Source: Imbricaverruca yamaguchii (Eukaryota > Arthropoda > Thecostraca > Neoverrucidae). Taken from it: DNA of 64,000 nucleotides. Below the pieces are notes generated by a model. The model was given only the letters and a program-made list of their open reading frames with translations. It was not told the DNA's origin and made no database searches. The stretch's first letter is position 1, and every line of letters starts with the position of its first letter. A program made the position numbers and the translations under genes. This document shows, piece after piece, positions 50,601-62,600 of this stretch. The stretch is from positions 248,001 through 312,000 of the forward strand of contig JAOTOL010001545.1 in NCBI GenBank assembly GCA_034440575.1. The letters run 5' to 3'.

Positions 50601-53600
50601 TATCAGTGTAGCGACCTGGACATGTCACGTACCGTGCAGGCCGTACGGCCGGAACACCCGGCGCTCAGTTAGGATTGACAGCGTCAGAGGCTTGCGGAAC
50701 ATGAGCTCTCGTACGACGCCGTCGCCGCCGCTGCAAGCAGACAGTGTCCGGCAACACATTAGCATTCCACACCAATAGCATGTCACATACGAGGTGAACA
50801 ATAGCGAGTAACTGCAACTCTGATGACGAGACGCCTTACTCGTCAGCTCAGGTAAGATTTACGATATGAACAATAGCGAGGTATTGCAACTCTGATGGGC
50901 AAGCCCCTTGCCCATTAACCCAGGTAAAACTTTATGAATACTTGAGTACTTCAAATGCATTCACTCTGCGAATTTGAAATTGAACCACATCTTGACACCA
51001 TGCTTCATCTTGTCAGAAGAGCATCAAGTGTCCAAGTGGTCGCGAACAACTTGCGCACGTGCGACGGCTGGAAACATGAACAAACAACCCACCAATGAGC
51101 TATCGCAACAATATTCACGGCACAAGCACAGGCACCTCTCCTCCTACCACACCGCGAAGCACACACACAACACCTCTTTCACTCCTCCCAGACCCACCCC
51201 AAGCACCACCCGCACGACGCAAACTCCCCCTTCACTATGGAACAATAACAGACTCAGAGGACGAAGACATTAGCTCAGACACCGTAGGAACCACTCCACA
51301 GAGCAGGCTGGTGCCAGGCGGACACCAAAACCTTAAACAAACGTAAAAAGGACTTAGAAAAAAAGTACAAAAAGAACCGAAAAAACAACAACAAAAAACA
51401 AAGAACTAGATAAAAGACAAAAAAAAGAGAATGAAAGAAAGAACTAACAGTGTATGATCTGACAACCATGTATGTTTGCAATGTTAATACCAAAGACGAT
51501 GACCCCCAACCCCCTCCCCGAACTACTACCAGGCACCGTCCGGACCACCACCTCCAACCGACTTCAAAGACGTAAACAGCCGATATCACCACACGGTGGC
51601 AGCCTGTTATAATTAATTTACACACACTACACACGCACACACACGTCCGAGGTGGTGATCGGATCATCAGCGCACGGGCACAACCGGAAAGCACGCCTGT
51701 CTTAAAACAGTTTCTGCTCGCTGCCGGGCGGCAAGTTCAGGAGCACTGTTTGTCAGGTCAATTGACACTATACGAATGGCTGCCCGAGTCCTCGCCAGTG
51801 GTGTCTGTCCACCGTCGATGGGATGCGGACCCGAACTGGTCACTGCGGTATTCTGCGCACGCAGTACCCACACACCGCTTCCGAGTGTTGCGCACAACCT
51901 GACACGGGGGTCGGTCGGACGGGAGTAGCACATCCCAGTTGGTGGCAGCAGGGGCTGAGTGATTTATGCCAACCATTGGCGGGCGAATAGCCAACAAGAT
52001 AGTGAGCGAACGACGCCGGGAACCGGAGCACTTTACACCGATTGGGGTATGAGTGAAGCACAACACACGTACACATGCACGCGCACGTCTGCGCACACCC
52101 AGATCAGGGACACACGGGGAGTAAATAATGAATACGTTACGTGATACATACACCCGACAGCACAAGCTAGTGAGAGGCAGTCGCACTTGAATCACCACAC
52201 ATGCTGATGTTGGCTTCATTCGTTCAGGATACCACCTAGCTGCGATGTCGACAACGGTGCTCACCTAATTTTCGGCCAGGTAGCCCACACCCCGACCCTA
52301 TAGCGCTTCCGTACATGTCCGGGAATGAGAGAGGGAGGCGGGTGAATAGACGGTACGTGGCGAACCACCCGGCGAGGACACGCCGCCGCCCTCCTGCTCA
52401 CCAGAACCGGCCGCGGCCGCCGGTGCTCGCGTTCAGTGAGAACCTCTGCACGATGACCGGGTAGCGGGCCTCGATGATCTCCGGGTCGGTGATGCGCGTG
52501 TTGGTCATGTGACTGTGCACACCGCTGCGGCCGTGCCAGGTGGGGCCCTGGCGGCCACACGATGGTGTCAGGTGGGGCCCTGGCGGCCACACGATGGTGT
52601 CAGGTGGGGCCCTGGCGGCCACACGATGGTGTCAGGTGGGGCCCTGGCGGCCACACGATGGTGTCAGGTGGGGCCGTGGCGGCCACACGATGGTGTCAGG
52701 TGGGGCCCTGGCGGCCACACGATGGTGTCAGGTGGGGCCCTGGCGGCCACACGATGGTGTCAGGTGGGGCCCTGGCGGCCACACGATGGTGTCAGGTGGG
52801 GCCGTGGCGGCCACACGATGGTGTCAGGTGGGGCCCTGGCGGCCACACGATGGTGTCAGGTGGGGCCCTGGCGGCCACACGATGGTGTCAGGTGGGGCCG
52901 TGGCGGCCACACGATGGTGTCAGGTGGGGCCGTGGCGGCCACACGATGGTGTCAGGTGGGGCCGTGGCGGCCACACGATGGTGTCAGGTGGGGCCCTGGC
53001 GGCCACACGATGGTGTCAGGTGGGGCCCTGGCGGCCACACGATGGTGTCAGGTGGGGCCGTGGCGGCCACACGATGGTGTCAGGTGGGGCCCTGGCGGCC
53101 ACACGATGGTGTCAGGTGGGGCAGTGGTGCCATGGCCCGGGGCCACACGGTGGTGTCAGGTGGGGCCCTGGCGGTAATGGTGGTGTCAGGTGGGGCCGTG
53201 GCGGCCACACGATGGTGTGGGCCGTACCAGGTGGGGCCCTGGCGGCCACACGATGGTGTCAGGTGGGGCCCTGGCGGCCACACGATGGTGTCAGGTGGGG
53301 CCCTGGCGGCCACACGATGGTGTCAGGTGGGGCCCTGGCGGCCACACGATGGTGTCAGGTGGGGCCCTGGCGGCCACACGATGGTGTCAGGTGGGGCCCT
53401 GGCGGCCACACGATGGTGTCAGGTGGGGCCCTGGCGGCCACACGATGGTGTCAGGTGGGGCCGTGGCGGCCGTGTCAGGTGGGGCCGTGGCGGTTACATG
53501 ATGGTGTCAGGTGGGGCCGTGGCGGCTACACGATGGTGTCAGGTGGGGCCCAGGCGGCCACACGATGGTGTCAGGTGGGGCCCAGGCGGCCGCACGATGG

Positions 53601-59600: not shown

Positions 59601-62600
59601 AACGAGTTGCGGCCCACCGCCCCGGCCAAGGCTAGCTTGGGCGCCCGAGTCCCAGCTGGTTGTATCATCTGCTTCGGTTTTGGGGCGGGTTGGCCATCTA
59701 GCCTCAGTGGGCGGCAATGGCCGAGAAACACCAGCCCAGCTGACAAACTTCTGCGTTGGGACAGCAGCGACAGAGGGTAGCGGGGGCGACGCGGTTCTGC
59801 ACGGCATGTCCACGCGACGTGTCGCCACTGTCACCGCCGCTCTACTGAGATGTCCTCGGGTGATATTCTTATTTTGGGTGATGGCTTTGCAGACTCATCG
59901 TCTGACGCGATACGCAGCGAGAGTGCCTCTCCATGGCTAACGCTAGCGAGCACGTGCCCCAAGAGCGTCCCATCAGGCGGTCATCCGCCCACTCCCTGTG
60001 CACCAGTCGAGGCGCCCAAAAGCCAAACCAACTAACCAACTAATCCCTATGCACCATACTCAACAGCTGGCAACAGTTGGCCAGGGCTCCTGGTCCCGTC
60101 GGTTCCACTGACTCGGTGCTGACGCTGAAGTGCAACACCACCTCGATGGAGGCACAACACAGCCAGGCCGGAACACGGCGCCGCTAGCGCGCGAACACGC
60201 CAGAAGGACGCCAGCGGCTGCACCGCGGCCCAGTCTCACAGACCAACGGAGCGGTGGCCGAACTACCGCACGGTGTTCAGCCGTGACCCGACGTGGTAGC
60301 CGGACACCGGAAACGCACACGGCCACCTGCAGCCCAGTCACCCCACGTCCGATACAAACAGAATAGTTAGGGCACCACAAATACATAGGATGCATAGGCT
60401 CAGGCTCAGTTTGTCTACTTCAAAAGGCTGAAACTGAGCATGGCGTGATGAGTAGACTGAAAGAACGGACCGATATTGTCATGGGATGAGAATATGGGCA
60501 GCAAGAAGAAAATGTTTCCGCCCGGGCTCGAACCGGGGACCTTCCGCGTGTGAGGCGGACGTGATAACCACTACACTACGGAAACGATAGTGCACGCCAC
60601 TCAGCACGCGCCCAGAGTGGGGCCGAAGGCTGCAGAACACCTGCAGAAGGTGCGCTCACCACACTCCTACCCTCCCTCCTCTCTTCCAGTTAGCACCCTG
60701 CTCACTCTGTAGTGTAGCAGTTGTCAGAGGCACCATTAACTATGAACAAACATATCTTTATCAAGTCTTTACATACTCATATAAGCCACTGAAAGAAGCA
60801 ACCTGATTCCATGTATGAGAGAATTCGGAATTCAGTCACAGTCACAGTCGTAGTCACTGACCCCACAACCGTCACCGTCACCGTCACCGTCACCGTCACC
60901 GTCACCGTCACCGTCACCGTCACCGTCACCGTCACCGTCACCGTCACCGTCAACATCACCATCAGTGCCCACCTGGAACTCGCCGGAGTGCACCAGCTTG
61001 AACGACTTGAAGACGGCGCCCTCCTCGAGCAGCGACTTGGAGTGTGGCGGCATGGAGCCGGGCGTGGTGCCGCCGATGTCGGCGTGGTGGCCGCGCGACG
61101 CCACGAAAAACACGGGCCGCTCCGAGTCACTGCCACAGCGCCACACGGTGTTAACAAGGGCCGCTCAGAGTCACTGCCACAGCGCCACGCGGTGTTAACA
61201 AGGGTCGCTCAGAGTCACTGCCACAGCGCCACACGGTGTTAACAAGGGCCGCTCAGAGTCACCACGCCGAGCGAGTCACTGCCCAGCGCCACACGGTGTA
61301 AACAAGGGCCGCTCAGAGTCACTGCCACAGCGCCGTGCAGTGTTAACGAGTCACTGCCACAGCGCCACAGTGTTAACAAGGGTCGCTCAGAGTCACTGCC
61401 ACAGCGCCACACGGTGTAAACAAGGGCCGCTCAGAGTCACTGCCACAGCGCCGTGCAGTGTTAACAAGGGCCGCTCCGAGTCACTGCCACAGCGCCACAC
61501 AGTGTTAACAAGGGTCGCTCAGAGTCACTGCCACAGCGCCATACAGTGTTAACGCCACGGGGAACGCGGGCCGCTCAGAGTCACTGCCACAGCGCCATAC
61601 AGTGTTAACGCCACGGGGAACGCGGGCCGCTCAGAGTCACTGCCACAGCGCCATACAGTGTTAACGCCACGGGGAACGCGGGCCGCTCAGTCACTGCCAG
61701 AGCGCCATACAGTGTTAACGCCACGGGGAACGCGGGCCGCTCAGAGTCACTGCCACAGCGCCATACAATGCTAACGCCACGGGGAACGCGGGCCGCTCAG
61801 AGTCACTGCCACAGCGCCATACAGTGTTAACGCCACGTACGCCACGGGAACGCGGGCCGCTCAGAGTCACTGCCACAGCGCCATACAGTGTTAACGCCAC
61901 GGGAACGCGGGCCGCTCAGAGTCACTGCCACAGCGCCATACAGTGTTAACGCCACGGGAACGCGGGCCGCTCAGAGTCACTGCCACAGCGCCATACAGTG
62001 TTAACGCCACGGGGAACGCGGGCCGCTAGTCACCACGCGCTAGTGTTACGCCACGGGGAACGCGGGCCGCTCAGTCACTGCCACGCGCCATACGTGTTAA
62101 CGCCACGGGAACGCGGGCCGCCAGCACCCACGCGTGTAACCCGGGGAACGCGGGCCGCTCAGTCACTGCCACAGCGCCATACAGTGCTAACGCCACGGGG
62201 AACGCGGGCCGCTCAGAGTCACTGCCACAGCGCCATACAGTGCTGCCACACGTCCGGCCAGCGCGCACCGTGCACTCCGGGTGAGGCAGAGGCGAAGAAC
62301 GGACATTGTGTACTGTGGCTGAACATAAAATCCTTAACCACCACCTGTGGACTACACCTTGGGGTGCGAGGGTGCTACACCATACCCCCTGAAGCAGTGT
62401 AAAATAATTGACCATGTGTCCTGGAAATTCACAGTTAATGGAATAGCGCTATTTCATCCTTGTCTTAGGTTTTTACCATTTTGCTACATGTGTGGGCAGT
62501 CATTATACACACGACTGCTAAAAATGTAAAATGCATGTGACTGAAGTGAAAGGCATTCCGCTTTTTTAATCCTTCAGTGGCGATCCTTTATTTTCTTCCA

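What the first reader, a model, noticed from the sequence alone, without database searches (positions are those of the whole stretch)
52402..62245. Splice-acceptor minisatellites: four OPLAH exons are each the last unit of a tandem array built from their own intron-exon junction
For the exons starting at 61129, 57391, 54039 and 52547, the sequence immediately upstream in transcription is a minisatellite whose unit holds the acceptor AG and the first 16, 23, ~10 and 11 exon bases. The four arrays have unrelated sequence and unit length (44-56, 58, 60-75 and 32 bp), so one gene produced the same architecture four times in nine introns. That offers the spliceosome roughly 15-34 near-identical acceptors per intron. 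I know of no described class of repeats seeded at consecutive 3' splice sites of one gene. Possible causes are a junction-linked break or slippage process, or failed intron-gain events.
Basis: seen in the sequence. Interest (0 to 1): 0.93.

Follow-up and report, generated by a model that had tools for sequence, protein, structure and literature searches.

The report
Boundary-seeded repeat arrays in barnacle gene
In a barnacle's 5-oxoprolinase gene, many exon edges (both kinds of splice site and the stop codon) have been copied over and over into the neighbouring non-coding DNA, a pattern already described in amphioxus as 'mirages' but here unusually dense and in another animal group.

Summary
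The four acceptor arrays are real. The 28-exon OPLAH gene reads open through 27 GT-AG introns (1293 aa, 84% identical to the Amphibalanus protein, so an unnamed barnacle). Each array's last unit is the true intron-exon junction, next to conserved protein. The architecture is not acceptor-specific: of 30 arrays in the gene, 13 overlap a coding boundary (7 acceptors, 5 donors, the stop codon). For splice sites that is 12 of 29 arrays, against 1.6 expected for random placement and 2.3 with G+C-matched seeds. OPLAH was picked because it is extreme. In myosin and CCT regions of the same genome 10 of 114 arrays overlap a boundary, against about 5 expected (P 0.014); the myosin loci alone show no excess. 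The junction's place within the unit is compatible with uniform, so a break at the splice site itself is not indicated. The class is described: 'mirages' in amphioxus genes. New, as far as I know: a barnacle, 13 boundaries in one gene, arrays grown from stop codons, a chance-corrected estimate. My best reading: ordinary tandem duplications that span a coding edge are tolerated and may persist because selection keeps one intact template copy. Which acceptor is used is untested.

The parts
61109..62242 (-). acceptor array of exon 20 (44-56 bp units, 19 core copies); unit holds AG plus 16-32 exon bases
   Evidence: TRF; copies; exon homology of distal units
60973..61129 (-). OPLAH exon 20
   Evidence: GT-AG, open joined frame, conserved protein
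57365..58918 (-). acceptor array of exon 21 (58 bp units, 26 core copies), 27 exon bases
   Evidence: TRF
57275..57391 (-). OPLAH exon 21
54034..55230 (-). acceptor array of exon 24 (60-77 bp units with a TG tract), 6-10 exon bases
   Evidence: TRF
53815..54039 (-). OPLAH exon 24
52533..53633 (-). acceptor array of exon 25 (32 bp units, 34 core copies), 11-15 exon bases; 10 of 33 copies scanned have AC in place of AG
   Evidence: TRF
52402..52547 (-). OPLAH exon 25
63889..64000 (-). in-window end of the donor array of exon 19 (59-62 bp units, 10 copies); the authentic first copy lies beyond the window (gene coordinate 64446, locus L003 position 946)
55735..55787 (-). 23-bp repeat that starts at the donor of exon 23 (one exon base by TRF; not counted as overlapping), with degenerate GGTGAG copies downstream
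   Evidence: sequence
44429..44522 (-). 37-bp repeat spanning the OPLAH stop codon into the 3' UTR
44489..61129 (-). OPLAH exons 20-28; exons 1-19 lie at higher coordinates, the array-copied end of exon 19 reaching into the window, and the gene begins at 95263 in window-extended coordinates (L003-L005, L038)

Best explanation
These are mirage-type minisatellites: tandem duplications whose founding unit happened to span a coding boundary (acceptor, donor or stop codon). Because the extra copies fall on the non-coding side, they are spliced out or left untranslated, so they are tolerated while one authentic copy at the exon stays under selection. The arrays then lengthen into the intron by slippage or unequal exchange. 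Shown: the architecture, the exon-to-array direction, the use of both splice sites and stop codons, and the excess in OPLAH. Inferred: that splicing uses the exon-adjacent copy, and that the excess arises because the selected copy is a permanent template that keeps boundary arrays from decaying.
For: Exon-derived parts encode residues shared with Amphibalanus, Pollicipes and Schistocerca, so the exon came first. 13 of 30 arrays in OPLAH overlap a coding boundary; 12 of 29 splice overlaps against 1.6-2.3 expected. The same structure was read in CCT regions (L062, L046, L069, L070) and at two myosin exons (L009, L033), and a second stop codon (L070) carries one. Using an upstream acceptor copy would give a stop in 81 and a frameshift in 1 of 82 decoys tested in four of the seven acceptor arrays, so a working OPLAH needs the exon-adjacent acceptor there. 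Template idea: the 12 splice-boundary arrays are longer than the 17 others in OPLAH (median 549 against 73 bp, P 0.0008, lengths typed) and weakly so in the sample (P 0.058). The exon-end copy is closer to the inner copies than the far-end copy in 5 of 7 arrays, equal in 1 and farther in 1.
Against: No RNA evidence for which acceptor is used. The template idea is indirect: detection favours long arrays, and two of seven arrays run the other way or tie. Myosin loci show no excess (3 of 67 with L022, 2.3 expected; L022 was later dropped, which leaves 2). OPLAH was chosen because it is extreme.
Confidence: 0.62

Rival explanations
1. Chance plus composition: the genome is full of minisatellites, exon edges are G+C-rich, and some arrays land on junctions; OPLAH is the tail of thousands of genes.
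For: Arrays are dense in the window and in the 30 myosin loci; OPLAH exons and the first 50 non-array intron bases are 66% and 62% G+C against 47-53% further in; myosin loci show no excess; first-pass sample only 7 of 114 against 3.7 expected, P 0.085.
Against: G+C-matched seeds still predict 2.3 of 29 in OPLAH against 12 seen and 4.8 of 114 in the sample against 10 seen, P 0.014.
Confidence: 0.22
2. A junction-coupled duplication process (breaks, R-loops or repair linked to splicing) seeds arrays at splice sites.
For: Both splice sites are hit, with a strong excess in OPLAH; in the first-pass sample, array ends lie within 60 nt of exons or inside them more often than expected (20 of 114 against 10.6, P 0.004).
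Against: The junction's position in the unit is compatible with uniform over 21 arrays; two stop codons, which are not splice sites, carry the same structure.
Confidence: 0.1
3. Failed or ongoing intron gain by tandem duplication of AG/GT units.
For: Proposed for amphioxus mirages (PMC3087553 passages).
Against: The OPLAH exons join without inserted residues: 3 gap positions in 1294 aligned columns with Amphibalanus, none in 1058 with Pollicipes.
Confidence: 0.03
4. Assembly artefact.
For: Tandem arrays are hard to assemble; no reads were available.
Against: Copies differ in sequence and unit length; two haplotype-like contigs (L062 and L063, 96% identical) both carry the array at the same CCT acceptor.
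Confidence: 0.03

Closest known systems
'Mirages' of amphioxus (Adh3, globins BflGb6 and BflGb9, PGBD5, troponin C)
   Same: Minisatellite-like tandem duplications spanning an intron-exon boundary, at 5' or 3' boundaries; units 10-160 bp; many, not all, copies keep AG/GT signals (PMC3087553 passages; PMC3902484 one passage)
   Different: Barnacle, not cephalochordate; 12 splice boundaries plus the stop codon in one gene; up to 34 copies; chance-corrected counts given; no RT-PCR here
Intron gain by tandem duplication of AG/GT proto-splice sites (Rogers model, as cited in PMC3087553)
   Same: Tandem duplication that involves splice signals
   Different: No new intron is inferred here; the arrays extend existing introns
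Ordinary intronic minisatellites
   Same: Unit lengths, internal variation, many copies
   Different: One end is fixed in coding sequence under selection

Membership tests
mirage (amphioxus boundary minisatellite) | tandem units containing both intron and exon bases of an authentic junction | tested here: met
   12 splice junctions in OPLAH; others in CCT and myosin regions
mirage (amphioxus boundary minisatellite) | occurs at both 5' and 3' exon boundaries | tested here: met
   7 acceptors, 5 donors
mirage (amphioxus boundary minisatellite) | regular splicing despite decoy sites | not testable with these tools
   no RNA; only the inference that decoy acceptors give stops or a frameshift
mirage (amphioxus boundary minisatellite) | copy-number instability between alleles | tested here: inconclusive
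   L062 and L063 arrays span 547 and 523 bp; the 221-base OPLAH query had one full match in the assembly, so no second allele was seen
intron gain by tandem duplication | a new intron bounded by duplicated AG/GT | tested here: not met
   arrays lie in introns whose flanking exons join without inserted residues against Amphibalanus and Pollicipes; whether the introns themselves are old was not tested

The most novel reading that the evidence does not exclude
Coding boundaries act as anchors that make minisatellites long-lived: purifying selection keeps a perfect template at the exon, from which the array is refilled. Barnacle genomes would then hold thousands of boundary arrays at splice sites and stop codons, and the spliceosome would routinely have to choose the last (or first) of many near-identical sites.
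Probability: 0.3. Interest if true: 0.72.

Novelty: new member of a known kind. Interest (0 to 1): 0.5.

Why it matters
Each array is a natural competition assay of up to 34 near-identical splice sites of which only one, in the four acceptor arrays tested, leaves the reading frame intact, so it tests how the spliceosome picks a site. A class that I know only from amphioxus papers appears in an arthropod, at stop codons as well, which hints at a general feature of minisatellite-rich genomes rather than an amphioxus oddity. It also warns that gene models and variant calls at such junctions may be unreliable.

Tried and rejected
Considered and dropped. The second DNA match at C1427: no OPLAH in L002, L006 or L007 by tblastn at E 1 with a recalled human query. 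Pfam scans of 20 window ORFs, a part of the 173 open frames of 100 codons or more listed, gave only an EF-hand exon and a reverse transcriptase fragment. Erosion of decoy AGs as a general rule: strong only in the exon 25 array (10 of 33 AC); AG kept in 20 of 20 scanned copies in exon 20, 24 of 25 in exon 21, 7 of 8 in exon 9 and 3 of 4 in exon 3. A gradient of similarity away from the exon: negative in 5 of 7 arrays, nominally significant in 3 of those; positive in 2.

Rows dropped or changed before counts: L008 (single long open frame); haplotig-like duplicates L045, L054, L060 and L063; 12 CCT loci replaced by the four fuller regions L069-L072; L022 was scored as a hit and dropped, because its true acceptor lies downstream of the array. 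The attempt to correct L022 already did not take. Sample junctions were called by a small weight matrix made from OPLAH's own junctions, and several calls are poor (for example L012, L028, L044). L064 overlaps by only 5 bases.

Not answered: PF00225, PF00069 and PF00122, PF00118 at first (answered) and a DNA search for the exon 21 unit. The sample therefore rests on two families.

Full report
What is there. The window is C1312:248001-312000 of an unnamed 767-Mb eukaryote assembly. OPLAH lies on the minus strand. I recovered the whole gene by adding L003-L005 and L038: 28 exons, 27 GT-AG introns (checked), a 1293-aa open frame. Its best two hits in the protein search are Amphibalanus amphitrite and Pollicipes pollicipes; over the whole alignments identity is 84% over 1294 columns and 87% over 1058 columns. 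So it is most likely a barnacle, and probably neither of those two species.

The four reported acceptor arrays are confirmed. For each, the last unit is the authentic junction. The exon-derived part encodes residues shared with other animals (for example [22 protein letters not shown] and PVFFVASRG, read against the three sequences, with some differences in each), so the arrays were built from the exon edge and not the reverse.

The pattern is wider than reported. Merging TRF rows with period 10 or more gives 30 arrays between 44300 and 95400; 13 overlap a coding boundary by at least 4 bases on each side: acceptors of exons 3, 4, 9, 20, 21, 24, 25; donors of exons 2, 10, 15, 18, 19; and the stop codon. 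Two of these overlaps are small (5 and 6 bases). A 23-bp repeat begins at the exon 23 donor, and a single extra copy of the exon 17 donor lies 67 bases downstream (sequence, spacing); neither was counted.

Chance. With exon overlap of up to 48 bases allowed, random placement gives 1.6 of 29 splice overlaps against 12 observed, 0 of 4000 shuffles reaching it. By size in the same call: arrays of TRF score 300 or more, 9 of 13 against 0.85; smaller ones, 3 of 16 against 0.76, P 0.03. Unit-length seeds matched for G+C give 2.3 of 29. This gene was brought to me because it is extreme, so an unselected sample matters. From PF00063 and PF00118, loci were given for 30 of 72 and 30 of 66 matches. A first pass gave 7 of 114 arrays against 3.7 expected, P 0.085, in 55 loci. 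With four fuller CCT regions and one stop codon, 47 regions give 11 of 114 against 5.1, P 0.0145. After dropping L022 it is 10 of 114, against 2.8 expected from unit-length seeds and 4.8 from G+C-matched seeds, P 0.014. By group: myosin loci 3 of 67 against 2.3 (2 without L022), other CCT loci 3 of 20 against 0.6, CCT regions 5 of 27 against 2.1. The excess is thus about twofold and comes from the CCT genes, and OPLAH stands well above it (12 of 29 against 10 of 114, Fisher P 0.0001).

Clear further examples by sequence: a CCT acceptor with about 53 exon bases in 76-bp units on two haplotype-like contigs (L062 and L063); a myosin donor with 39-bp units, about 20 copies (L033); a CCT last exon with an acceptor array (52 bp, 3.4 copies) and, at its other end, an array grown from the stop codon (L070).

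What follows for splicing. If an upstream acceptor copy were used, the frame would meet a stop in 81 of 82 cases and shift in 1 (exons 9, 20, 21, 25; exons 3, 4 and 24 were not tested). Of the 24 downstream donor decoys at exons 15, 18 and 19, 13 give a stop, 7 a frameshift and 4 an open in-frame insertion (exons 2 and 10 not tested). Most scanned copies keep their AG or GT; the main exception is the exon 25 array, where 10 of 33 have AC. A functional OPLAH therefore requires the copy next to the exon at those acceptors. I have no RNA; in amphioxus, RT-PCR and Adh3 data suggest mirages do not disturb splicing (PMC3087553 passage).

How it arises. The position of the junction within the unit is compatible with uniform over 21 arrays (mean 0.47, KS P 0.35), so the founding duplications appear to span the junction without breaking at it. 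Stop-codon arrays show that splicing is not required. The 12 splice-boundary arrays are longer than the 17 other arrays in OPLAH (median 549 against 73 bp), and their exon-end copy is closer to the inner copies than the far-end copy in 5 of 7 tested. I read this as selection preserving a template at the exon, so that boundary arrays decay less; this step is inferred, and detection bias toward long arrays is a caveat.

What is known. [quoted passage not shown] The founding paper (Canestro 2002) is not held and I know it only from those passages and recall. None of the listings that my searches returned named such arrays in barnacles or other arthropods. One search lists barnacle genome papers, of which I saw passages of PMC9582164 only. 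The library lacks most subscription papers, so this is weak evidence of absence.

Verdict. Observation confirmed; interpretation partly supported; a new member of a known kind, of interest for its density, its new phylum, the stop-codon arrays and the chance-corrected estimate, which is the first that I know of. On re-checking the calls I mended counts and wording (exon 20 homology, exon 17 spacing, exon 19 coordinates) and left the odds as they were.

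Noticed in passing
52533-53633: In the exon 25 array 10 of 33 scanned units have AC instead of the acceptor AG although other columns are 97% identical, as if decoy acceptors were being silenced; not seen in the exon 20 and 21 arrays.
   Followed up: partly
L003 826-946 (gene coordinates 64326-64446): The second and third donor copies of exon 19 lie 60 and 120 nt downstream of the first, in frame and without a stop, so their use would add 20 or 40 residues.
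   Followed up: partly
60868-60964: A 16-copy GGTGAC hexamer starts a few bases inside the intron after exon 20 and resembles the donor.
   Followed up: no
60513-60585: tRNA-Val (anticodon CAC) on the minus strand inside an OPLAH intron.
   Followed up: no
43266-43700: Reverse transcriptase fragment (PF00078, E 3e-7) just downstream of OPLAH on the same strand.
   Followed up: no
35016-35321: EF-hand exon on the plus strand, with a further weak EF-hand-like match at 37463 to a recalled calmodulin; no TRF row overlaps 35016-35321.
   Followed up: partly
L053/L054, L059/L060, L062/L063, L044/L045: Pairs of contigs (C89/C1012 and C1273/C207) carry the same CCT exons at 94-99% identity, as retained haplotypes would; they could be used to measure array polymorphism.
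   Followed up: partly
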